DNA from: Halomonas alkalisoli
GTDB lineage: Bacteria; Pseudomonadota; Gammaproteobacteria; Pseudomonadales; Halomonadaceae
NCBI RefSeq assembly: GCF_021412585.1
Contig: NZ_JAKCMI010000012.1
Span: 186,001 to 250,000 of the forward strand
Reading direction: 5' to 3'
Length of the DNA: 64,000 bases
The notes beneath the pieces are model-generated. The model was given only the letters and a program-made list of their open reading frames with translations, had not been told where the DNA came from and did no database searches. A program made the position numbers and the translations under genes. Positions 5,820-17,636 of this stretch are shown here, one piece after another. Positions within the stretch are counted from its first letter, which is position 1. Each line of letters opens with the position of its first letter.

Positions 5820-8800
5820 TTATGGACCGCTATCGACCTGCGGAGGTTTCCCGGGGCGGGAAAAGGTATAGACCAGATCGACCGCCTGCGCCGCACCCGA
5901 AACGGCCTGCACATAGAGATTGCGCCACAAGGTATAGCGCAGGGTCAGCTCGGCGATGGGCGAAAAGATACCGACGCCGTAGCTGATGCGAAGGTCCTCG
6001 GTGAGATAGCCGGTCACCACCACCTGGCTCTCGTCCCCCATGCCGGCCGTTTCCAACGCCAGGTCGTCAATGCCGAAGGCCTGGCCGATAGCCCCCACCG
6101 CGCCGCCGGTCTGCCCCAGGGTCAGGCCGACCAGCGCAGCCGTCAGGGCGCCGTCGGCATCGCCATCCCGCGGTGCCCGTCCACGCAGGAGATAGGATAG
6201 GGCACTGGCTTCATCCATGGCCGGCTCGGAAAAGATCTCCAGGCTTGGCTCGGCGGCAAAGCCGGTAACGCGAAGCCCCGCGATCACGCCATCGTCGGTC
6301 AGGTCGGGATTGCGGATGGCCTCGAAGTCGAGCAGTGGCTGGTCAGGAGGACCGCTGAAGAGCAGCTGGCCCTGGCGGATCATCAGGTCCTGGCCGAAGG
6401 CGCGGAAGCGCCCATCGGCCAGGATGACGTCACCGAACAGCTGCACCGGCCCGTCCTGCTGGCGAACCTGCAACGTACCCCGCAGCCCCGTTTCGAGCCC
6501 GCGGGATTCAAATTGCATATCGGGCCCCAGGTTCAAGTCGATGCGAACGTCCAGCGACATGCCGGCTTGCTGCAAGGCCACCGCAGCGGCCTCATCCGCC
6601 CCGGCCTCTTCCTCGAGGTCGGCGGTACGCCTGGCACGGGCTTCGTCGCGGCGGGTGATGATGATCTCGTCGGGACTGGGTGAGACCGCAGCGGGCGGCG
6701 TATCGCCGATCTCGAGCCGTGCCCAGGGGACCTGAACCGCGCCGCGTACCTGCAGCCGACTCGGGTCGATGCGCACCCGCAGGTCCGGCGCGATGCGCAA
6801 CCGGCCGAACTCGGGCATCGTTACCAGCAGCGGTCGCTGCGTGCCGTCCAGGTCGATCCCGATTCGCCAGTCGTCCGGCGAGGGCCAGGCCGCATCGCCG
6901 TTGATCACCAGCCGCCCATCGTCGCTTTCCACATAGCCCATGATACGGGCGGTCTCGCCGTCGAGCTCAACCCGGATGCGGCCATCCACGATGATCAGGG
7001 GGATATCCATCCCGCTGGCCTGCAGGCCGCTCAACTCCAGGGCGCCATTCAGCTGCGGGGATTGGCCGGTGCCGGATATGTCCACTCGCCCATCGATGAC
7101 GCCCTCCAGGGTGTCCATGCCGGCGGCCAGGGTGCGATAGCGTGACAGATCGAGTGCATCGAGGGTCAGGGTCCCCTCCAGGGCGCCGTCGCCGGCCGGA
7201 TCGTCCTGTCCCACGCGCAGTCGAACGCGGCCGGCATCGGCCAGGCGCAGGTCAAGGTCCAGATCGACTCTCTGCTGGCTGGCATCCACATTCACACTCA
7301 ATTGCGTGGCCGGCAGCGACCAGGGCTGACCGTAGATATCCACTCCCTGGAGGGAGATCTCGCTTTCAAGGTCGCTCTGCAGGCGCCACTGGGCACCACC
7401 CCTTCTCCACTGGGCCTGAAGGTTCATGTCGGTCTGGCCCGTCGCACGCCACTCTTCGGGCAGCCATTCATCCAGCAGTTCCATGGGCAACCCGCGAACC
7501 GAGAGAGCGGCATCACCGCTATCGGCACTGGCTTGCAGCGTCTCGTCGAGACAGATACTGCCGCCCTGCTCGCGGCGCAGGCAGAACGGCTGCACGCGCA
7601 CGCTGCCGGCCTCGAGATCGGCGCTGAAGCTCAGTGGTTCGTCCAGGCGGATATCGCCGTACTCCGCCGTCACCTCCAGCGGATGGATACGCCCGGTGTA
7701 GCGCTGGCGGTCCTGGGAGAGCCCTCCCTCGAGTACCAGTGAGGCCTGTGACAGCGGCATGCCGCGTCCGGCAATGGCGTCCAGCGTCAGCGCATGGTCC
7801 GATAGGCGGCCGTCGAGAAGGAGGGAGACCTCGCTGAAGCGCTGTCCGCCGGCGTTGAGACTCTCGATGTCCAGCCTCAGATCGAGCGCGGGGTCGTCCA
7901 GCCCCAGGATGCTGCCTGCCAATTGCAGGCTCTCCAGGTGATTGTCGGAAAACACCAGGCTATCGCCAAGGAGTTCGATGTCGATCTGGGGCGTCTCGAG
8001 GCTTCCCGATGTGGTGAATTGCCCGGCCAGGCTGCCGCCAAGGTCGTCGTGCAGGTTGGAGAGGTTGGGCAGGTCGATCTCGCCGTCAAGGCTCATGCTC
8101 TGCTCTGTCACCGCACCGCTGGCGGAGAGGCGATTGTCGGCCTGGCGAAACTCGAAGCGATCGATCTCCCAGCGCATCTCGCTGTCACCGCTGAGGCGCG
8201 CCTGCAGCGACATCGGCAGCGACTGCAGTTCGCCACCGATATCGAGGCGAGGCACGTCCAGCTGCCAGCCATGGAGCCCCTGGGCAAACGCCACTTCGAT
8301 ATCGCCGCTCAGGCGGCCATCGGTGGCGTCGGTGAAGGCCCCGGGATCGACGTTATCGAGGCGAATGACGGCGCTCACGTCCAGGCCCTGGGACCAGTCG
8401 GCACGACCGCGGCTGACCAGCGAGGCATCGCCCAGGGTCAACGACAGTGGCAGCCAGGCAAAGTGCTCGAAATCACCGCTGCCCGACAGGGCCACACGGG
8501 TACGCGGTATCTCGGGCCCTTCCAGCCGCATCGACAGAGCCGCACTGTAATCGAGCAGGCTGCCTGCGAGGCGCAGCGACAGATCTTCGATCAGATAGGG
8601 GTCGACCGACACCTCTTCCACGTCCTCGGGCATGTCGGTGACCAGCCGCATCGGCAGTGGCCACTGCAGCAGGTCGCTTTCCAGCGAAGCGGTAAAGGGC
8701 AAGGTCGGGTCCAGCGCATCGAGCCGGGCCGTCAGCTCTGCCTCCACGGGGCCTGTGGCAGCCAGCTCTGCCTCCAGGTCGCCGAGACTTCCGCTCAGCA

Positions 8801-10172
8801 GCAGATCGAGCCGCTGTCCGGCCAGCTCGGGCAGGGTTTCCGGTAGCCACAGACTGGCACGCAGCCGCGCATCGAGGGGATAGTCGTCCCGCAGTTGGAC
8901 CCTGGCCGACAGTTGAGCATCGACATCCAGGGTGGCGAGATTGAGGGAGGTCACCTCGACTTCCTGGCCGCTGGCTTCGAGGCCCAGGGTCAGGTGCCGG
9001 ATCGAGTAATCGACGAGGCCGCTGAGCTCGATCTCCTCGAGCCGGAGATGCGGCACGGACACCGACAGGGGAAGATGAATCTCGGGAAGCGCGATGCGCT
9101 CGCGCTGGGCCAGCGCCAGACCGGCCTCGATCTCGGCAGCGATGGCCGCCGGAAACGGCGATGCCAGGGCAATAGAGGCATCGATGGCTTCCGCTGACAG
9201 GCGAGGCTCGTCGGTTTCGCTCTCCGCCAGAGCCAGCTGAGCCCCTGGAGAGAGAGGGAGGCGAATGCGCAGTCCGGTAAGCCGAGCCGGCAACAGGGCC
9301 AGCTGCGACTGGGCGGCCTCGATGCCGGAGGTGAACGTATCGATCTCGATCCGAGTACCGTCCCCCAGCGTTACGATCGTGTCGACGACCTGAAGCTCGG
9401 GGGCCGTCACGGCCAGGGGCAGGCGAATCACCCGCTCCTCGGCAGCGACGGCTTCCTCCTCCACTTCGGCAGTGCCCGGCGGCGCGTCCGTCAGTGCGAT
9501 GGCCGCGTCAATGGCTGGTGCGGCAAGGCGTGGCGCGCCATCTTCGGTGTCGACCGGAGCCAGCTCGGCCCCCGGCGAGGCGGGAAGCGAAACGCGAAGC
9601 CCCTCCAGGCGGGTGGTCAGCAACTCGAGCTCGGATGCACTCGCCCTGGCCGCCGAAGAGAAATCATCGAAGCGGAGCCGCGTGCCGTCTGCCAGCGACA
9701 GCTCCACGTCGACCAGCGACAGCGCACGGATCTCCACGGGAAACGGCAGGCGGATCTCTCCTGCGGGCGCCCTTTCCTCCTCTTCCGGATCGGCCTCACC
9801 CGCTCGTAGCTGGATATGCGCACCCTCGACGGCGAGATGCTCGATACAGAGCCGCCCCCGGAGCAGGCAGTCGTCGGACCAGGCCAGGTCGAGGCGTTGC
9901 AATGACACCGTCGCGGGCCCGGCGTCCAGCTCCAGGCCGTGCAGGACCAGTCGGTCGAGCGGGGCCCCTTCGGCATCCTCCAGTTGGTAGAAGCCTCGTT
10001 CGGCCCCCTTCTCCAGCAAGAAGCCAGTGCCCCATGGGGAGAGCGCCAGGCCCAGCGCCAGGATGACCCAGCCCAGCAGCCAGAGTGGCAGTACGAACAG
10101 CAGACGAACAAGAGACCAGAACAGCAGCCGAGCCCTCAGAATTCCGGGCCGATGGCGAAATGAAGGCGCCAC
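5820..10172 (-). CDS. tamB: Translocation and assembly module protein TamB
   Basis: TamB is a very large inner-membrane-anchored periplasmic beta-taco protein that works with TamA in outer-membrane protein assembly and anterograde phospholipid transport. The 1450-residue protein has one N-terminal membrane anchor (about residues 14-45), a long beta-strand-rich periplasmic body and a C-terminal TamB/DUF490 domain including [16 protein letters not shown] and the terminal [19 protein letters not shown]. It is about 190 residues longer than E. coli TamB (1259). Part of the excess is an internal near-repeat at residues about 139-228 and 248-338. The frame starts 37 bases inside the 3' end of tamA. 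The exact start is uncertain because no strong ribosome site precedes the ATG at 10172. Confidence 0.92.
9159..9758 (-). repeat. Internal duplication in TamB N-terminal region
   Basis: Two ~90-residue blocks about 109 residues apart in TamB repeat the same order of motifs: IRLP(F/L), then a VD...V.L.DGTR segment, an acidic-aromatic step, a GLR(V/I).LP.SPGA(E/Q)LA segment and a (D/E).PRL(A/S)..AIDA(A/S)IAL segment. A weaker third start ([14 protein letters not shown]) follows. The duplication is visible at protein level, not as an exact DNA repeat. Confidence 0.65.
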
Positions 10173-12022
10173 GCATTCTCCTCGTCGTCAAAGGGATGGG
10201 CGACATCGAAGCGTACCGGACCGACGGGTGAAATCCAGCGTACTCCGAGGCCAGCCCCGGTATTGAGCGAATCGGGACCCCAGTCATCGAAGGCGTCACC
10301 GGTATCGATGAAGGCGGCGCCCCACCAGTTACCGGTGATGCGGTGCTGAACCTCGGTACTGGCGGTCAACAGCTGCTGGCCGCCTCGCAGCCGCCCCTCC
10401 TCGTTTCGCGGCGCCAGGGTTTCATACCCGTAGCCACGTACCGTGCGGTCGCCGCCGGTGAAGAAGCGCAGCGATGGCGGCACCTGGGAAAAGTCATTGG
10501 TCTCGATGGCACCGAGGCCAAGCCGGTTCACGAAACGCAGATTGCTGCCCAGCATGCGAATCCATTCGGTATCGCCTGTCATGCGCAGGAAGTCGGCACC
10601 CGAACCCCACATGCCGTCGGAGTATTCGAAGGCAATTCTCTGGCGGTCGCCCCAGCTGGGAAACCGAGGGTCGCGAGTCCGTGTCCGTGACCAGCTCACC
10701 CCGGGGTAGTAGATGAGGACACTATCGGCTTCCCCGCCCTGGGTGAAGTCCTCGTAGGTGGCGCGGACGTAGAGTGTCTGCACCCAGCGGTTGTCGAACT
10801 CCCAGCGCCGTGCCAGTTCGATCGTGCTTTCGAGGGTCCGGGTATCTTCCATGTCCCGATGACGCAAGCCGTACTGCAGGCGGTATTGATCGCGCAACGG
10901 ATCGTCCAGCGGTAACAGGTAGGTACCGGTCAGGCGCTGCTCCGGCTGAGAGATGAAGAGGTCGTGGTCGAGGCTATGGCCGTAGCGGTTGATCCAGGGC
11001 TGCTCCCAGCCGAAACCCATCCGGGGCCCTACGTCGGTGGCGTAGCCCACGGCGACCTCGAACTGGTGCCGGTCTGCCGGTGCCAGCACGACATCGATCG
11101 GCATGACGGGGCGTTCGGGTCGATGCAGCGTGGTCACGGCGGTGAGTGCCTCGGCGGATAGCCGTGGCCCATCGGCAGGCGGCGGCGAGGGTTCTGCCCG
11201 ATCGCTGGGCAGCGTCGCCTCTCCCTGGGTGCCGACCTCGTTCCACCAACCCAGCTCAGGGGGCGTCAGGGCCAACTGCCGGCGGCTGTCCAGCCGCGGA
11301 CGTACGCTGACCGAGCTGAACCAGCCCGCCTGCCCCAGGCGCTGGGCATAGAGCGCCACATCCCCGGCAAGGTAGGGTTCCCCCGGCGTGAAGGGGGCCA
11401 TCTGCCGAAGCCGCTCCTGGAGGATATGGCTACCCCGTATGGTCACATCGCCGAAGGCGTAGCGCGGCCCGCTGTCCAGCGCCAGGTAGAGGCGCGCGCT
11501 CTCGTCGAAGGGCCGGACCTCCATGCGCCGGTCAGTGAAGCTCCAGTCAAAATAGCCCCGTTCCAGGGAGAGGTTGGCAAGGCGATTGCGCATGCGGTCC
11601 CAGGGGGCATGCTGCAGCGGGTCGCCAACGTCCAGCGGGAATGCCTCGACCGTATCGCGGAAAGGGCCATCGTTGCTGGCATCGCCTTCGAGGCGAATGT
11701 CCAGAACCTCGATGATGACCTGGGGGCCGGGCTCGATGACCAGCTCTACATGACGGGGCGGATCACGCTCTTCGAGTCGCTGGTGGATCTGGGGTTCATA
11801 GTACCCATAGACCCGCATGGCCTCCCGAGTGCGCCGCAGGACTTCGCCTTCGAGACGCACTCGCCCGTACTGGGCGGCATCGAGGCTGCCCAGGTAGTGG
11901 CGAACATTGTCGGCGACATCGCCCTCCAGCCCGTCGATACGGGCCTCGAGGGCCAGCGCATCCTGGCTGAGGCCAAGGCACAGGACCACTGCCCCAAGGC
12001 ATGCTGCTACGCGCTTTCCCAT
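10136..12022 (-). CDS. tamA: Outer-membrane assembly factor TamA (Omp85 family)
   Basis: TamA is an Omp85-family outer-membrane barrel that partners TamB. The 628-residue reading starts MGKRVAACLGAVVLCLGLSQ, a signal peptide with likely cleavage after ALA (about residue 24). Then come POTRA-like segments and a 16-strand-type barrel with the Omp85 lid motif region VRGYGYETLAPRN and the final strand ending in [10 protein letters not shown], whose terminal Phe is the outer-membrane insertion signal. The ATG complementary to 12020-12022 was chosen to put the signal peptide at the N-terminus; the frame extends 20 codons further to 12082. Length compares with E. coli TamA (577). It is followed by tamB with a 37-base overlap. 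Confidence 0.92.
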   Translation of the reverse strand: MGKRVAACLGAVVLCLGLSQDALALEARIDGLEGDVADNVRHYLGSLDAAQYGRVRLEGEVLRRTREAMRVYGYYEPQIHQRLEERDPPRHVELVIEPGPQVIIEVLDIRLEGDASNDGPFRDTVEAFPLDVGDPLQHAPWDRMRNRLANLSLERGYFDWSFTDRRMEVRPFDESARLYLALDSGPRYAFGDVTIRGSHILQERLRQMAPFTPGEPYLAGDVALYAQRLGQAGWFSSVSVRPRLDSRRQLALTPPELGWWNEVGTQGEATLPSDRAEPSPPPADGPRLSAEALTAVTTLHRPERPVMPIDVVLAPADRHQFEVAVGYATDVGPRMGFGWEQPWINRYGHSLDHDLFISQPEQRLTGTYLLPLDDPLRDQYRLQYGLRHRDMEDTRTLESTIELARRWEFDNRWVQTLYVRATYEDFTQGGEADSVLIYYPGVSWSRTRTRDPRFPSWGDRQRIAFEYSDGMWGSGADFLRMTGDTEWIRMLGSNLRFVNRLGLGAIETNDFSQVPPSLRFFTGGDRTVRGYGYETLAPRNEEGRLRGGQQLLTASTEVQHRITGNWWGAAFIDTGDAFDDWGPDSLNTGAGLGVRWISPVGPVRFDVAHPFDDEENAWRLHFAIGPEF

Positions 12023-12081
12023 ATCAACGGTTTCCTGACTGGCTCCAGTCCAACCCGCGACTGGAGGCCCACCTGATGGCA

Positions 12082-12999
12082 TTACTGCAGGGCTTCCAAC
12101 CCGGCACTGAGTGCGAGCTGGGTCTGACGCAGCTCGATCAATTCGGCTTCCATGGCGGTGAGTCTGTTCTGCAGTCCGCTAACCGTTTCCTGATGCTCCT
12201 GCTGGCCTGACGCAAGGCCTTCCAGCTCCTCGTTCAAGGCGTCGAGACGCTCGGTCACACTCTCGAGCTGAGCGATCAGCTCCGCCTCCTGGCTCCGGGT
12301 GCGCTCATCCAGCGCCTGGAAACGCTCGTCCCGACCGGCCAGTTCCTCCGCCAGGGCGGCCTGCACGTCCTGCTGGATGTCGCCCAGTTCATCGAAGCGG
12401 CCCTGCCATTCCGACAGTTGCTCGGCGGTGCGCTGGCTGGAATCGGCCACCGTCTCGATGCGGGTGGCCAATGCCTGGCGCCCCTCTTCACTGGCCCGCT
12501 CCAGTGCATCCATCGAAACCTGGGTCGCACTCAGCAGGGCATCCCGGTAGGCCGCTTCCTCGGCCATGGTCTCCAGCTGCTCGGCAACGCCAGCGAGGCG
12601 ATCGTCCAGCTCGTCAAGCCGCGATTCGTCGATGTCGGCGACCTGCTCCACCTCCACCTCCAGGTTCGCCGTGCGAGCAGCCAGGGATTCGCCGCGATTC
12701 TCCAGCGTCGTCAGCCGTGACTCGATCACTTCCAGGCGATCGCCTCGGCCTTCCTCGGCATCGAAGCGAGCATGGACATTGGAGAGTTCGCCGGTCAATT
12801 GTCGCCACTGCTCATCGAAGCGCTGACGCTCCTGCCAGCCGAACCAGGTCACCGCTCCCAGGGCAATGACCAGCAGGAACACCATCAGCCGAAGCGGCCA
12901 AAGCCTGGGCATCGGCTGTGCTGGCCGCCGTGCCCGCGTCAGGCTGGTGTCCGGGTCGGGGACGATGGGGCGTCGCTCGGGCGGACGCGCTTCTGGCAT
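12082..12999 (-). CDS. Single-pass membrane protein with long coiled coil (unknown function)
   Basis: Not a family I can name. The 305 residues consist of a Pro/Arg-rich cytoplasmic tail (1-32), one membrane helix (about 33-55, LMVFLLVIALGAVTWFGW) and then about 240 residues of uninterrupted charged heptads rich in Glu, Arg, Ala, Leu and Gln, so the C-terminal part should be a long periplasmic coiled coil. The start has AAAGGAG 7 bases upstream. It lies between the UGDH-like gene (73 bases upstream) and tamA (60 bases downstream), on the same strand. The position suggests an envelope role, perhaps as a spacer or scaffold next to TamAB, but this is inference from neighbourhood only. Confidence 0.75.
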   Translation of the reverse strand: MPEARPPERRPIVPDPDTSLTRARRPAQPMPRLWPLRLMVFLLVIALGAVTWFGWQERQRFDEQWRQLTGELSNVHARFDAEEGRGDRLEVIESRLTTLENRGESLAARTANLEVEVEQVADIDESRLDELDDRLAGVAEQLETMAEEAAYRDALLSATQVSMDALERASEEGRQALATRIETVADSSQRTAEQLSEWQGRFDELGDIQQDVQAALAEELAGRDERFQALDERTRSQEAELIAQLESVTERLDALNEELEGLASGQQEHQETVSGLQNRLTAMEAELIELRQTQLALSAGLEALQ

Positions 13000-13072
13000 G
13001 GCAAACTCCTTTCAGCAAAGGCGGCAGGCGCCCATTGTAAGCAGGGAAACCGCCTGCACGCACGCTGTTACC

Positions 13073-14380
13073 TCAACGAGAAGGAGTCTGCGCGGGGTCG
13101 GCCCGGCGGCCGATACCCCGGTAGGAAAGTCCCCAGCTCGCCACATGGGATGGATCGTAGATGTTGCGCCCATCCAGCAGCAGGCCTTCCCGTAGCTGTC
13201 CCGCCAGCCTGGCCCAGTCCGGGTTCCAGTAGTGCTTCCATTCGGTGACCAGCATCAGGGCATCCGCGCCTTCGCAGGCAGCATAGGGGTCGGCATCGAA
13301 TAGCTCCAGCAATGGATGGTCGCCGACTTCGGCGCGCAGCGCCGCCGTGGCGGCGGGGTCGTGCAGCCGAACCTTGACGCCCTGGGCCCACAGTGCCTTG
13401 AGCAGCGTGAGGACCGGTGCATGATCGATGCGGGCCGAGCCCGGCTTGAAGGCCGCGCCCCATATCGCCAGGGTGCGCCCTTCCAGGCGGCCGTGGAAAT
13501 GGGTCCAGAGCTTGCGAAACAGCGTCTCCTTCACCTGCTCGTTGATATCCAGAACCTGTTCCAGCAGCGCCGAATGGCGGCCGCTGGCCTCCTGGACATC
13601 GGCCAGCCGCATCAGGTCGCGGGAGAAGTTGGGTCCGCCGAAACCGCAGCCCGGATAGAGGTATTCATAGCCGATCCGTGAGTCGGCACCCATGCCCTGG
13701 CGGACATGCTCCACGTCCACCCCGAGGGTATCGGCCAACCCCGCGATCTCGTTCATGTAGCTGATACGCGTTGCCAGCATGCCGATGGTGGCCAGCTTGG
13801 TCAGCTCCGCCGCACGACGCGGCATGCGCTGAACCACATCGCGACGTCGATTGAAGGCGCGCAGCAGTTCGCGCACCTGGGCTTCGGCATGATCGTCATC
13901 GCAGCCCAGCAGCCAGCGGCCGGGGCGGGTGAAGCTGGCCCAGGCGCGCCCCTCCTCCAGCATGTCGACCAGGGCTACGGCACGGCGCTCCGGCGCTCCA
14001 AGGCGCGACTCCAGGCGCTCGGTCTCGCCCACCGGGAAGGTGGAGTTGTTGATCAGCATCAGCCCGCCACCGTGGCCCGCAGCGGCCTGTTCCACCAGAT
14101 CGCCGGCCTCGTCCCGCTGTTCGGGAGAGAGAGCGAGCCATAGGATATCGATGGCGCCCGGGTGCGGCGTGTCGCTGCCCGCCACCGTCAGGGTGCCGAG
14201 CTCACGCCCTTCCTGGAGGCTGGCCATGAGGTCGGGCTCGCGCTTCAGCCAGTCGACTTCCAGCAGGCGGGGCCAGGGCATCGAGGCGTGGGGCACCCAG
14301 TGCACCTGGTGCCCTACCCAGGAGAGGGCGGCGGCGGCCGTGGCGGCCGCCAGCTCACTTCCATGAATCTCGAGTCGCAT
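13073..14380 (-). CDS. UDP-glucose/GDP-mannose dehydrogenase-like protein, catalytic Cys absent
   Basis: A 435-residue protein aligned by eye along its whole length with UDP-glucose 6-dehydrogenases: NNSTFPVGETERLESRL matches the STVPVG loop, AELTKLATIGMLATRISYMN matches the helix with the conserved Lys and Asn, and the C-terminal third has WGAAFKPGSARIDHAPV and DGRNIYDP. Two functional sites are damaged. The catalytic GGSCFPKD is replaced by GGPNFSRD (Asn for Cys), and the N-terminal Rossmann GxGxxG is absent (IHGSELAAATAAAAL). It starts 5 bases after galU and is surely co-transcribed. It may be a non-catalytic paralogue, a regulator, or a dehydrogenase with altered chemistry. Confidence 0.8.
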   Translation of the reverse strand: MRLEIHGSELAAATAAAALSWVGHQVHWVPHASMPWPRLLEVDWLKREPDLMASLQEGRELGTLTVAGSDTPHPGAIDILWLALSPEQRDEAGDLVEQAAAGHGGGLMLINNSTFPVGETERLESRLGAPERRAVALVDMLEEGRAWASFTRPGRWLLGCDDDHAEAQVRELLRAFNRRRDVVQRMPRRAAELTKLATIGMLATRISYMNEIAGLADTLGVDVEHVRQGMGADSRIGYEYLYPGCGFGGPNFSRDLMRLADVQEASGRHSALLEQVLDINEQVKETLFRKLWTHFHGRLEGRTLAIWGAAFKPGSARIDHAPVLTLLKALWAQGVKVRLHDPAATAALRAEVGDHPLLELFDADPYAACEGADALMLVTEWKHYWNPDWARLAGQLREGLLLDGRNIYDPSHVASWGLSYRGIGRRADPAQTPSR

Positions 14381-14385
14381 GGCGA

Positions 14386-15276
14386 TTACTCCGGCTGGCT
14401 ATAGCGGGAGAGCAGTTCGCGAAAGCCCTCGCCGAAGCGCGGATGACGGCGACCATAGACCATGGTGGCTTCGAGATAGCCGAGCTGATGGCCGCAGTCG
14501 TAGGTCTTGCCGCGCATTCGCCAGGCGTCGACGCCATCGGTCTGACGCAGCGTCTCGATGGCGTCGGTGAGCTGAATCTCGTTGCCGGCGCCGGGCGGGG
14601 TTTCGGCCAGCAGGGAGAAGATACGGCCCGGCAGGATATAGCGACCGATGACGGCCAGGTTGGAGGGTGCCTCTTCCCGTGACGGTTTCTCCACCACCCC
14701 GTTCAGCGGGCAGGATTCACCCGCCGAGGGTGCGCCGCCCCGAGGATCCACGATGCCGTACTTGTGGACATTCTCCCACGGCACTTCTTCGACCATCAGT
14801 TGGCAACGTCCACTGGCCTGAAAGGCATCGATCATTCCCGCCAGGTCGTTGCGCTCTAGGCCCTCATCATCCACCAGGACGTCGGGGAGCAGTACCGCAA
14901 AGGGTTCGTTGTCGCCGATTACCGGGCGGGCGCAGAGTACCGCGTGGCCAAGGCCCAGGGGCTCGGGCTGGCGAACGCTGATGATATTGACGTCATCGGG
15001 AACGATGGCGTTGAGTTCGTCGAGCAGCTCCTGCTTGTCCTTGGCCTCGAGGCTCGCCTCGAGCTCGAAGTGCTTGTCGAAGTGGTTCTCGATAGCACTC
15101 TTGCTGGCATGGGTCACCAGAACGATATCGCGGATCCCGGCGGCGACCGCTTCATTCACCACATACTGGATCACGGGGCGATCGACGATGGTGATCATCT
15201 CCTTGGGAATCGCCTTGGATGCGGGCAGGCATCGGGTTCCGAAGCCGGCCACGGGGAGAACAGCCTTGCGAATCAT
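14386..15276 (-). CDS. galU: UTP-glucose-1-phosphate uridylyltransferase GalU
   Basis: Makes UDP-glucose from UTP and glucose 1-phosphate for envelope polysaccharides. The N-terminal nucleotide-binding segment LPVAGFGTRCLPASKAIPKE, the following IVDRPVIQYVVNEA, and PVIGDNEPFAVLLPDVLVDD are diagnostic. The length of 296 residues equals the usual GalU size. GGAAGG precedes the ATG. It heads the minus-strand run galU, UGDH-like gene, coiled-coil gene, tamA, tamB, msrA, and is divergent from ubiG, sharing a 160-base promoter region. Position 14-15 has Cys where many GalU have Met, which is not expected to matter. Confidence 0.95.
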   Translation of the reverse strand: MIRKAVLPVAGFGTRCLPASKAIPKEMITIVDRPVIQYVVNEAVAAGIRDIVLVTHASKSAIENHFDKHFELEASLEAKDKQELLDELNAIVPDDVNIISVRQPEPLGLGHAVLCARPVIGDNEPFAVLLPDVLVDDEGLERNDLAGMIDAFQASGRCQLMVEEVPWENVHKYGIVDPRGGAPSAGESCPLNGVVEKPSREEAPSNLAVIGRYILPGRIFSLLAETPPGAGNEIQLTDAIETLRQTDGVDAWRMRGKTYDCGHQLGYLEATMVYGRRHPRFGEGFRELLSRYSQPE

Positions 15277-15380
15277 TGTGCCTTCCTTGTCGCTGGAGTC
15301 GGTTGATCAAAATGACGACCCGGGCCACCGATGATTCCGTCATGGGAAAGCCCGGGTCGCTACGGGTACAATAGCGCATG

Positions 15381-15393
15381 ATACCGAAGGTAT
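15381..15393. promoter_or_regulatory. Short palindrome in the galU-ubiG divergent promoter region
   Basis: ATACCGAAGGTAT is an inverted repeat with 5-bp arms and a 3-base centre. It lies between a TACAAT -10-like hexamer for ubiG and TTCAAT/TATTGT hexamers (18-bp spacing) that could serve galU on the minus strand. It may be an operator or a chance palindrome. Confidence 0.3.
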
Positions 15394-15436
15394 TGAATGA
15401 TGCCAGGGTGTCGACCCATTCACACGGAGATACAAC

Positions 15437-16159
15437 ATGAGCGCAAGCCTCCATCACCACAATGTGGACCAGGCCGAGATTGCCAAGTTCGAGGCGCTGG
15501 CCAGCCGGTGGTGGGACCCGCAGAGCGAATTCAAGCCGCTGCACGACATCAATCCGCTGCGCCTGGATTTCATCGATGCGCGCTGTGGCCTGGCGGGACG
15601 TCAGGTCCTCGACGTGGGCTGTGGCGGCGGCATCCTTGCCGAAGCCATGGCCCATCGCGGTGCCCGCGTTACCGGCGTCGACATGGGGGAGGCGCCCCTC
15701 GGCGTGGCGCGCCTGCATGCCCAGGAAAGCGGTGTCGAGGTGACCTATCGTCAAGCCAGTGCCGAGGAGATGGCCGCCGAGCATGCCGGCGAGTTCGACG
15801 TGGTGACCTGCCTGGAGATGCTGGAGCATGTACCCGACCCCGGCTCCGTCATTCGCGCCTGTGCCACCCTCGTCAAGCCGGGGGGGCACGTCTTCTTCTC
15901 GACGCTCAACCGGAACCCCAAGGCCTACACCCTGGCGATCATCGGTGCCGAATACCTGCTCAGGATGCTCCCCCGCGGCACTCATGACTACCGCAAGTTC
16001 ATCCGCCCCTCCGAACTCGCCGGCTGGTGTCGGGAAGCGGGCCTGGAAGTACGCGAACAGAGCGGCCTGGTCTACAATCCGCTGACCCGCCGCTACCGGC
16101 TCTCGGCACAGGATGTTTCGGTCAATTACCTGATGCACTGTCGCCGGGAGACAAGCTGA
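15437..16159 (+). CDS. ubiG: Ubiquinone biosynthesis O-methyltransferase UbiG
   Basis: SAM-dependent enzyme carrying out both O-methylations in ubiquinone synthesis. The 240-residue protein begins with the UbiG N-terminus ([20 protein letters not shown]), has the SAM motif [15 protein letters not shown] at about 58-72 and the family C-terminal half with [21 protein letters not shown]. The length matches E. coli UbiG (240). Its stop overlaps the next start as TGATG at 16157-16161, so the two genes are translationally coupled. Confidence 0.96.
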
Positions 16160-16824
16160 TGCAGTTGCCGGACGCGCTGCTGTTCGACCTCGACGGGACC
16201 CTGGTCGATACCGCACCCGACCTGGCACGAGCCACCAATGCCCTGCGTGCCCATCATGGGCTGGCACCACTGCCCTACCCGGTGATCCGCGCCCAGGTCT
16301 CCAATGGGGGCAGCGCCCTGGTCATGCTGGCACTGGGTCTGGAAAAGGCCCACGACGGCCATGAGGAAGCCCGGGAGTTTCTGCTCGAGGCCTATGGCCA
16401 GGCCGTCGCCGAAGAGAGCCGGGTCTTTCCCCCGCTGGATCGCCTGCTGGCGAACTGGGAGTCCAGGCGTCGGCCCTGGGGCATCGTCACCAACAAGCCT
16501 CGGGCCTATGCGGCGCCATTGATCGACGCCCTGGGCCTGATGCCAGGCGCCCTCCTCTGCGCCGACGACCTGCCCGTCAAGAAGCCGTCCCCCGAACCGC
16601 TGTGGGCCGCTGCGGTGGCACTGGGCGTCGCGCCGGAGCGGTGCTGGTATATCGGCGATCATCTGCGCGACATGCAGGCGGCGCGTGCCGCCGGCATGCC
16701 GGCCATAGCCGTGGGCTACGGCTACATCGAGGAGGGAGACGACTATCGCGACTGGCCGGCCGACCTATGGTTCGAGACCAGCGCGTCCCTGGCGGAGACC
16801 CTGATGCCCGCTCCCGCACTCTGA
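16159..16824 (+). CDS. mupP: HAD phosphatase, probably N-acetylmuramic acid 6-phosphate phosphatase MupP
   Basis: Haloacid-dehalogenase phosphatase of 221 residues. Motif I is DLDGTLVDT with Asp10 and Asp12, motif II lies in the GIVTNKP segment, motif III in VKKPSPEP, and motif IV in YIGDHLRDMQAA. Such proteins are often named phosphoglycolate phosphatase (Gph). I prefer MupP because the order ubiG, this gene, then a YciK-type short-chain dehydrogenase is the Pseudomonas arrangement in which MupP was shown to act in cell-wall MurNAc recycling. The start ATG overlaps the ubiG stop by one base. Substrate cannot be proved from sequence. Confidence 0.78.
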   Translation: MQLPDALLFDLDGTLVDTAPDLARATNALRAHHGLAPLPYPVIRAQVSNGGSALVMLALGLEKAHDGHEEAREFLLEAYGQAVAEESRVFPPLDRLLANWESRRRPWGIVTNKPRAYAAPLIDALGLMPGALLCADDLPVKKPSPEPLWAAAVALGVAPERCWYIGDHLRDMQAARAAGMPAIAVGYGYIEEGDDYRDWPADLWFETSASLAETLMPAPAL

Positions 16825-16871
16825 TCCAGGCATTCTGACCCAGGCACCGGGAGCGGGCCATGACGCCGGGG

Positions 16872-17636
16872 CTACGCCGACTTCGGCGGCTGCGCGTCGA
16901 AGCGCTCGCCGTTATGGCCATGACTGTCGGGCCCCATCAGCCACAGGTAGGTGGGCATGATGGCCTGCGGCGTGGGCAGCGTCTCGGGGTCTTCGCCCGG
17001 GTAGGCATTGGCCCGCATGGTCGTGCGCGTCGCACCGGGGTTGAGGCTATTCACCCGCAGGGTGCCGAGGTGCTCGACCTCGTCGGCAAGCACTTCCATG
17101 AACCCCTCGGTCGCGAACTTGGAGACCGAGTAGGCACCCCAATAGGCACGCCCCTTGCGCCCCACGCTGGACGAAGTGAAGACCACCGAGGCGTCCTTCG
17201 ATGCCTGCAATAGCGGCAACAGTGCCTGGGTCATCCATACCGGTCCGTTGAAATTGACCTGCATGACCTGCTCCCAGAGCTCGGGATTGTACTGCTCGAA
17301 GGGGGTTATCCGCCCCAGCAGGCTGGCATTGTGCAGGAGACCGTCGAGGCGGCCGAACTCCTTGTCGAGCATCTCCGCCAGGTCGTGGTAATCCTTCAGC
17401 GTGGCGCCTTCGAAGTTCAGCGGCACGATCGCGGGCTGAGGGCAGCCTGCCGCCTCGATCTCGTCGTACACCTTTTCCAGCTTGCTCAGCGTACGACCCA
17501 GCAGTATGACCGTGGCTCCATGGCGGGCGAATTCCAGTGCGGCCTCACGACCGATGCCGTCACCGGCTCCGGTGACCAGAATGATACGTCCTTCAAGCAG
17601 ATCGGCTGGCGCCTGGTAGTCGATCCTGCAGCTCAT
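16872..17636 (-). CDS. yciK: YciK-family short-chain dehydrogenase/reductase
   Basis: Classical short-chain dehydrogenase of 254 residues. The cofactor site TGAGDGIGREAA is at about 22-33, the NAG-like motif is HNASLLGRI, and the catalytic Tyr and Lys are in YWGAYSVSKFA. The N-terminal YQAPADLLEGRIILVTGAG is characteristic of the YciK group, whose substrate is unknown. The ATG at 17634-17636 follows GAGGAG. It faces mupP tail to tail and follows cpoB by 32 bases on the same strand, so it may ride on the tol-pal transcript. Confidence 0.85.
   Translation of the reverse strand: MSCRIDYQAPADLLEGRIILVTGAGDGIGREAALEFARHGATVILLGRTLSKLEKVYDEIEAAGCPQPAIVPLNFEGATLKDYHDLAEMLDKEFGRLDGLLHNASLLGRITPFEQYNPELWEQVMQVNFNGPVWMTQALLPLLQASKDASVVFTSSSVGRKGRAYWGAYSVSKFATEGFMEVLADEVEHLGTLRVNSLNPGATRTTMRANAYPGEDPETLPTPQAIMPTYLWLMGPDSHGHNGERFDAQPPKSA

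What the first reader, a model, noticed from the sequence alone, without database searches (positions are those of the whole stretch)
13073..14380. UDP-glucose dehydrogenase-like protein without catalytic Cys or Rossmann glycine motif, coupled to galU
The full-length fold is recognisable and the Lys and Asn of the active site remain, but Cys is Asn (GGPNFSRD) and the N-terminal GxGxxG is gone. The gene has no frameshift and sits 5 bases after galU, so it is maintained. It may bind UDP-sugars as a regulator or structural partner, perhaps linked to envelope assembly by the downstream tam genes.
Basis: partly seen in the sequence, partly recalled or inferred. Interest (0 to 1): 0.6.

Follow-up and report, generated by a model that had tools for sequence, protein, structure and literature searches.

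The report
Inactive-looking UDP-glucose dehydrogenase relative
A protein shaped like the enzyme UDP-glucose dehydrogenase, but without the parts needed for its chemistry, has been kept for a very long time next to the genes that make UDP-glucose, and the gene called ugd in the Acinetobacter capsule locus appears to be one of these proteins.

Summary
Window 13073-14380 (-) encodes an intact 435-aa UGDH-fold protein with Asn at the catalytic Cys and GSELAA for GxGxxG, starting 5 nt after galU. It is not recent decay. It belongs to one old clade of Cys-less homologues in gammaproteobacteria: of 197 distinct sequences read, 0 have intact GxGxxG, yet the UDP-glucose contacts stay (Lys220, Arg260, Lys339 equivalents 197/197; DGRN 195/197, two rows truncated). 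Fifty Cys-bearing UGDHs keep every position checked. The clade is monophyletic (100/100). dN/dS is 0.093; compared with active UGDH only the NAD domain is relaxed. 105 of 108 Cys-less loci have galU and/or pgi next door, against 1 of 43 Cys-bearing loci. The tam link is halomonad-specific.

Unexpectedly, the 'ugd' of the Acinetobacter baumannii capsule locus (galU-ugd-gpi) is a member. In 7 of 8 Acinetobacter genomes checked, the only PF03721 protein is TviB/Gna-type. This fits published capsule loci, where D-GlcA is assigned to extra genes ugd2-ugd5.

Best reading: a UDP-glucose-binding pseudoenzyme serving UDP-glucose supply (sensor/regulator). Loss of the UGDH active site is shown at sequence level; binding and regulation are inferred.

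The parts
13073..14380 (-). Cys-less UGDH-like protein (pUGDH), 435 aa
   Evidence: AlphaFold2 model pLDDT 89.7, Z 44.9 to UGDH 3gg2
14345..14362 (-). residues 7-12 GSELAA in place of GxGxxG
   Evidence: intact GxGxxG in 0 of 197 Cys-less and 50 of 50 Cys-bearing sequences
13628..13630 (-). codon of Asn251, at the position of the catalytic Cys (human Cys276)
   Evidence: N, S, H, G or A in the 197 Cys-less sequences
13796..13798 (-). codon of Lys195 (human Lys220), kept
   Evidence: 197 of 197
13676..13678 (-). codon of Arg235 (human Arg260, reaches the glucose of the partner subunit), kept
   Evidence: 197 of 197; role from PMC3184952 passages
13445..13447 (-). codon of Lys312 (human Lys339), kept
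   Evidence: 197 of 197
13163..13174 (-). DGRN 403-406 (holds the human Arg442 equivalent), kept
   Evidence: 195 of 197; the other two rows, L045 and L065, are truncated
14386..15276 (-). galU, UTP-glucose-1-phosphate uridylyltransferase, 5 nt upstream
   Evidence: TIGR01099 340.2 bits over cut-off 326.8
14389..14392 (-). GGAG, likely ribosome-binding site of pUGDH inside the last galU codons
   Evidence: SD-like core in 62 of 66 named loci that keep galU upstream
12082..12999 (-). coiled-coil-like protein gene between pUGDH and tamA (halomonad neighbourhood)
   Evidence: only sub-threshold matches to coiled-coil families
10136..12082 (-). tamA (halomonad neighbourhood only)
   Evidence: Pfam Omp85 and POTRA_TamA_1
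5820..10172 (-). tamB (halomonad neighbourhood only)
   Evidence: Pfam TamB E 4.6e-61

Best explanation
The protein is a pseudoenzyme derived from UDP-glucose 6-dehydrogenase. Most likely it folds as a UGDH-like dimer and still holds UDP-glucose (or a close UDP-sugar) through Lys195, Arg235 from the partner subunit, Phe252, Lys312 and the DGRN loop, but cannot hold NAD and has no thiol for the oxidation. I propose that it works as a UDP-glucose sensor or scaffold that tunes the pathway fructose-6-P -> glucose-6-P -> glucose-1-P -> UDP-glucose (Pgi, Pgm, GalU), with GalU as the first candidate partner. Shown here: clade, residues lost and kept, purifying selection by domain, gene neighbourhood, predicted fold. 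Inferred: dimerisation, binding of UDP-glucose, absence of all catalysis, and the regulatory step with its partner.
For: In the 197 Cys-less sequences: GxGxxG intact 0, Asp for the NAD ribose 3, Arg346h 3, but Lys220h, Arg260h, Lys339h 197 and DGRN 195; control: all of these in 50/50 Cys-bearing UGDHs. The most decayed subgroup, L047-L053 and L075, lost Thr131h, Glu161h, Glu165h and Asp280h as well, yet keeps the UDP-glucose contacts 8/8. Cys-less sequences form one side of a 100/100 branch. dN/dS 0.093 (N domain 0.152, central 0.018, C 0.074) against active UGDH 0.073 (0.080, 0.028, 0.089) and galU 0.072. galU and/or pgi within about 1.5 kb in 105 of 108 Cys-less loci, 1 of 43 Cys-bearing; pgm in 5 of 24 wider contexts. 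Predicted fold is full-length UGDH, Z 44.9, 2.4 A over 412 residues to 3gg2.
Against: No binding or regulation was measured. Lys195 (197/197) and Asp255 (177/197), catalytic in UGDH, persist, so some other chemistry is possible. 14 of 80 named loci, ten of them titled Vreelandella, keep the gene although galU is not there. Co-variation of rates with GalU is no stronger than with TamA (partial correlations 0.37 and 0.38). Four nearly complete family genomes lack it (G094, G116, G117, G274), so it is not indispensable. Three Cys-bearing UGDHs also sit near pgi or galU (L080; Piscirickettsia L259; the second copy in L107). [quoted passage not shown]
Confidence: 0.5

Rival explanations
1. It is a neofunctionalised enzyme: it still binds UDP-glucose but does NAD-independent chemistry (for example hydrolysis, transfer or epimerisation) using Lys195 and Asp255.
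For: Lys195 197/197, Asp255 177/197, Glu143 184/197; central domain as constrained as in the active enzyme; conserved Glu9 in the former glycine loop of the named halomonads (80/80).
Against: In the subgroup L047-L053 and L075 Asp255, Glu143 and Thr114 are all replaced in 8/8 while the binding residues stay. A new acid-base set was not looked for systematically.
Confidence: 0.25
2. It is a partner or dominant-negative subunit of a genuine UGDH in the same cell.
For: The central domain, which carries the dimer contact in UGDH, is the most conserved part; the window genome has two Cys-bearing relatives, L001 and L002; 52 of 55 genomes without a close UGDH still have some other PF03721 protein over 100 bits, which may include E. 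coli-type UGDHs.
Against: 55 family genomes with a Cys-less copy have no close Cys-bearing UGDH, and two of them (G137, G156) have no other PF03721 protein above cut-off. 7 of 8 Acinetobacter genomes or records have only a TviB-type dehydrogenase besides it.
Confidence: 0.05
3. It is still a UGDH that works with Asn, His or Ser in place of Cys and an unusual cofactor site.
For: Lys, Asp and the sugar site are kept; published Cys276 mutants of human UGDH keep partial steps (PMC3184952, passages); capsule papers list the Acinetobacter gene as the UDP-glucose dehydrogenase.
Against: The residue at the Cys position drifts between N, S, H, G and A, and GxGxxG and the ribose Asp are gone; in A. baumannii capsule loci D-GlcA is assigned to additional genes ugd2-ugd5 (PMC9676051, passages).
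Confidence: 0.05
4. Recent decay of a redundant ugd gene.
For: Catalytic residues are lost; a few split or broken copies exist (G084, G222, G251, G266).
Against: Old clade across families, dN/dS 0.093, 88 of 90 genus genomes keep it.
Confidence: 0.02

Closest known systems
UDP-glucose 6-dehydrogenase, BceC/TuaD type (PDB 2Y0C-2Y0E, 3GG2)
   Same: Full three-domain fold, UDP-glucose contact residues, sequence relation (profile E 1.6e-121).
   Different: No catalytic Cys, no GxGxxG, no NAD-ribose Asp, no BceC Tyr10, Glu161 equivalent is Asp; below the NCBIfam TIGR03026 cut-off (174.1 against 189.8 bits).
'Ugd' of the Acinetobacter baumannii capsule (K) locus module galU-ugd-gpi-gne1-pgm
   Same: Same clade, same losses and retained residues, same galU/pgi neighbourhood.
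   Different: About 41% identity; in print it is listed as the UDP-glucose dehydrogenase that makes UDP-GlcA (PMC3628348 and PMC9676051, passages).
GalF, the low-activity or inactive GalU paralogue of enterobacteria
   Same: A degenerate homologue kept in the UDP-glucose supply pathway (abstracts of PMC4643126 and PMC11796359).
   Different: GalF derives from GalU itself and is a nucleotidyltransferase; the present protein derives from the next enzyme in the pathway.
UgtP and OpgH, UDP-glucose-linked size regulators
   Same: Precedent for a nutrient-dependent size regulator tied to UDP-glucose (search listing with starts of abstracts; details recalled).
   Different: Unrelated glucosyltransferases; analogy only.

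Membership tests
UDP-glucose 6-dehydrogenase (EC 1.1.1.22) | three-domain UGDH fold | tested here: met
   model pLDDT 89.7; Z 44.9, 2.4 A over 412 residues to 3gg2_D; caveat: UGDHs were in the input alignment
UDP-glucose 6-dehydrogenase (EC 1.1.1.22) | catalytic Cys in GGxCFPKD | tested here: not met
   Asn251. The 197 and 50 sequences were split by this column; the tree supports the same split
UDP-glucose 6-dehydrogenase (EC 1.1.1.22) | NAD-binding GxGxxG and Asp at the end of beta2 | tested here: not met
   GSELAA and Pro30; PF03721 not hit at E<=1
UDP-glucose 6-dehydrogenase (EC 1.1.1.22) | active-site Lys220 and Asn224 (human numbering) | tested here: not met
   Lys195 kept, Asn224 equivalent is Ile199
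UDP-glucose 6-dehydrogenase (EC 1.1.1.22) | UDP-glucose contact residues (Arg260, Lys339, DGRN with Arg442) | tested here: met
   roles of Lys339 and Arg442 are recalled, that of Arg260 is from PMC3184952
UDP-glucose 6-dehydrogenase (EC 1.1.1.22) | NAD-dependent oxidation of UDP-glucose | not testable with these tools
   needs an enzyme assay
NCBIfam TIGR03026 nucleotide sugar dehydrogenase | score over curated cut-off 189.8 | tested here: not met
   174.1 bits; the A. baumannii member passes with 193.7
GalF-like GalU regulator | GalU-type nucleotidyltransferase sequence | tested here: not met
   no NTP_transferase match in the protein
Cys-less UGDH clade described here | monophyletic, Cys-less, galU/pgi neighbourhood | tested here: met

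The most novel reading that the evidence does not exclude
A previously unrecognised family of UDP-glucose-sensing pseudoenzymes, widespread in gammaproteobacteria, born once from UGDH and encoded with Pgi, Pgm and GalU, controls UDP-glucose supply; the common 'ugd' of A. baumannii capsule loci is one of them and does not make UDP-GlcA. (A second published ugd homology group, in 2.1% of capsule loci, was not examined.)
Probability: 0.35. Interest if true: 0.85.

Novelty: new variant of a known kind. Interest (0 to 1): 0.72.

Why it matters
UGDH is a textbook enzyme, and I know of no described clade of it that dropped both the nucleophile and the NAD site while keeping the sugar site (recalled, not a search result). 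If right, a gene named in the standard Acinetobacter capsule-locus annotation has the wrong function, UDP-GlcA in those strains would come only from accessory genes such as ugd2-ugd5, and a possible regulatory layer on UDP-glucose supply, a node for capsule, LPS and other glycans, becomes testable with one purified protein and one deletion.

Tried and rejected
Selenocysteine idea: many genus hits were flagged '1 TGA inside'. In the 30 loci read, those stops lay at the C-terminal end of the matched range or came from reading the wrong strand. Rejected.

'No UGDH in the cell': I first took genomes without a close UGDH as having none. PF03721 showed that 52 of 55 have another intact-looking N-domain protein over 100 bits, many in open frames of about 390-430 aa, G004 has a split one, and only G137 and G156 have none besides the Cys-less copy. 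The claim was cut to that.

Envelope link by tam genes: holds only in halomonads. Rate co-variation with GalU over 63 loci: not specific. Rfam: nothing in 11000-17500. Promoter scan: a single weak site before galU and none between galU and the gene, with 0.5 expected by chance; weak. The first structure model had a poor central domain; a second with more distant UGDHs was used, which may pull the model towards the active form. Families absent from the fold listing are not excluded by it.

Literature: searches. In the passages I read no paper said that the Acinetobacter Ugd lacks the Cys. The most relevant paper (Kasimova 2018 on Ugd2, seen only in reference lists) is not held, so this could be in print there. 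Whether ugd2-ugd5 keep the Cys was not tested, except that an extra E. coli-type UGDH in G1088 (L341) has GTGYVG and GGYCLPKD.

Full report
OBSERVATION. The ORF at 13073-14380 (-) is intact, 435 aa, with its ATG 5 nt after the galU stop; GGAG 8 nt before the ATG lies in the last galU codons. Pfam finds the central and C-terminal UGDH domains (E 1.7e-26, 2.1e-21) but not the N-terminal one at E<=1. Cys is Asn251 and GxGxxG is GSELAA. Lys195 equals human Lys220; the Asn224 equivalent is Ile199, so the statement that Lys and Asn remain is half right. The window genome has five PF03721 matches over the cut-off elsewhere, two of them in close Cys-bearing UGDHs (L001, L002).

DISTRIBUTION. In the genus, 88 of 90 genomes (window genome included) have an orthologue (68-95% identity in the others; G016 and G069 partial, G084 split in two frames); the two without, G055 and G082, are 87% and 77% complete. 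In the family, 268 of 275 carry a Cys-less-type copy by score, broken ones in G222 and G266 included. The seven without are G055, G082 and G264 (71-87% complete) and G094, G116, G117, G274 (99-100% complete). In the order, 115 genomes were sampled, and Cys-less copies were read in seven genomes of three further families: G316, G352, G380 (f43), G374, G310, G346 (f37), G299 (f26). In the class, 350 genomes were sampled. Of 28 loci read outside the family, five from three families outside the order (G437, G679, G602, G486, G648) are Cys-less and 23 have Cys. A larger order sample (371 genomes, 39 matching at E<=1e-85 with a Cys-less query) gave 30 loci, all Cys-less.

RESIDUES. Of 247 distinct sequences (23 identical rows dropped), 197 lack Cys (N 128, S 29, H 19, G 14, A 7) and 50 have it. 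The split is by the Cys column; the rest is independent of it. In the Cys-less set GxGxxG is intact in 0, the ribose Asp in 3, the Arg346 equivalent in 3, the Lys279 equivalent in 3 and the Glu161 equivalent in 4 of 197. The Lys220, Arg260 and Lys339 equivalents and both Gly of GFGG are kept in 197, Phe277 in 187, Glu165 in 184, Asp280 in 177, Thr131 in 164, Asn224 in 102, DGRN in 195 (the other two rows, L045 and L065, are truncated). All these positions are 50/50 in the Cys-bearing set. Arg260 reaches across the dimer to the glucose in human UGDH (PMC3184952, passages); the roles of Lys339, Arg442, Lys279 and Arg346 are recalled. The sequences were collected by similarity to Cys-less queries, so the sets are not a random sample.

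PHYLOGENY AND SELECTION. Three maximum-likelihood trees put all Cys-less rows on one side of a 100/100 branch (55 rows; 47 rows with three distant dehydrogenases as outgroup; 44 rows with Acinetobacter). With the outgroup the Cys-less clade nests among Cys-bearing UGDHs, so one origin by loss is the simplest reading; the outgroup branch is long and the program warned of it. dN/dS over 13 sequences (78 pairs, 77 usable for two of the domains) is 0.093, by domain N 0.152, central 0.018, C 0.074; galU 0.072. Thirteen active UGDHs of the genus give 0.073 and 0.080, 0.028, 0.089. The NAD domain is relaxed about twofold; the UDP-sugar and dimer parts are not.

NEIGHBOURHOOD. Of 80 named loci, 63 read ubiG(-) galU gene coiled-coil tamA tamB, 14 lack galU there, and in the stretches held two lack the downstream genes and one lacks ubiG (UbiG confirmed in the window). 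Where galU is upstream (66), the gap is 3-6 nt in 65 and an overlap of 13 in one. Outside the halomonads the usual partners are galU and pgi, the latter identified as glucose-6-phosphate isomerase: in 24 of 24 wider Cys-less contexts that I fetched, galU and/or pgi are in the cluster, in five with a phosphoglucomutase. In 108 Cys-less loci with short flanks 105 have galU and/or pgi, against 1 of 43 Cys-bearing loci; the three without are L049 (partners further off), L283 and L288. Against a strict rule: a Piscirickettsia plasmid (L259) has a Cys-bearing UGDH with galU and pgi beside it, and in G380 a Cys-bearing copy lies in the same cluster as the Cys-less one (L107). The module galU, pgi, pgm is the route from fructose-6-phosphate to UDP-glucose.

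ACINETOBACTER. A protein search of the plasmid collection hit chromosome-sized A. baumannii records. The gene lies between galU and pgi, followed by a galE-type gene and, in reverse orientation, a pgm-like match (names of galU, pgi and galE confirmed). It reads GFGGENFSHD and GTTLHA and keeps Lys, Arg, FK and DGRN. Two further A. baumannii records carry the same motifs. In 239 genomes of that family 92 matched at E<=1e-80. I read 52 of these (30, 20, G867 and G936): all Cys-less. G1160 is nearly identical to the A. baumannii protein, hence the genus name for g392. In eight Acinetobacter genomes or records (E<=1e-8) the only PF03721 protein is TviB/Gna-type in seven; G1088 has an additional E. 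coli-type UGDH that keeps its Cys. Published capsule work lists ugd as UDP-glucose dehydrogenase, always present (PMC3628348, PMC9676051, passages), in two homology groups of which I did not examine the rarer. It assigns D-GlcA to ugd2-ugd5 in 24 loci and, in KL71, UDP-GlcA to ugd4 (PMC11619341, passages). That pattern is what an inactive common Ugd predicts. [quoted passage not shown] I saw no experiment behind it in the passages.

STRUCTURE. The second AlphaFold2 model (pLDDT 89.7, pTM 0.82) is a complete UGDH fold: Z 44.9, 2.4 A over 412 residues to 3gg2, and 44.7 to BceC 2y0e; best Foldseek E 1.2e-38, to BceC 2y0d. The N domain keeps its strands and helices although its binding motif is gone.

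MECHANISM. Shown: loss of nucleophile and NAD motif, retention of the UDP-glucose pocket residues, strong purifying selection, association with UDP-glucose synthesis genes. Inferred: it binds UDP-glucose as a dimer and reports or buffers it, acting on GalU, Pgi or a consumer. Partnership with active UGDH is unlikely as the general role: 55 genomes lack a close UGDH, though 52 of these have some other PF03721 protein; two have none, and seven Acinetobacter genomes or records have only a TviB-type one. Other chemistry on UDP-sugars is the serious rival.

NOVELTY. GalF is the precedent for a degenerate homologue in this pathway (abstracts). In the library searched no paper holds both 'UDP-glucose dehydrogenase' and 'pseudoenzyme', and none of the passages read notes the missing Cys in Acinetobacter Ugd; the paper most likely to mention it is not held.

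Noticed in passing
L258 6001-7263 and L290-L319: Capsule-locus ugd of Acinetobacter is Cys-less; A. baumannii Ugd passes the NCBIfam NDP-sugar dehydrogenase cut-off (193.7 against 189.8), which may keep the functional name in place.
   Followed up: yes
L143, L144, L152, L153, L160, L161, L163, L169, L170, L181, L184, L187, L188, L191: In 14 of 80 named loci (10 titled Vreelandella) galU is absent between ubiG and the pUGDH gene, which stays; where galU went was not checked.
   Followed up: partly
L047-L053, L075: A faster-evolving subtype (NNST replaced by VQPV, HPVL and similar), mostly in order galU-pgi-gene, that has lost nearly all catalytic residues but keeps the UDP-glucose contacts.
   Followed up: partly
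L107 8498-9796 and 11998-13386: One cluster (G380) holds both a Cys-less and a Cys-bearing UGDH copy beside galU, pgi and galE.
   Followed up: partly
L196, L207 (G117): A genus that lost the gene (g8) has two galU copies in G117 and galU pieces, two of them at contig ends, in G116.
   Followed up: no
L252-L255 (G437, G602, G486, G679): Small genomes (1.6-1.9 Mb) carry the galU-pgi-pUGDH operon and branch first in the clade; the organisms are unnamed here.
   Followed up: no
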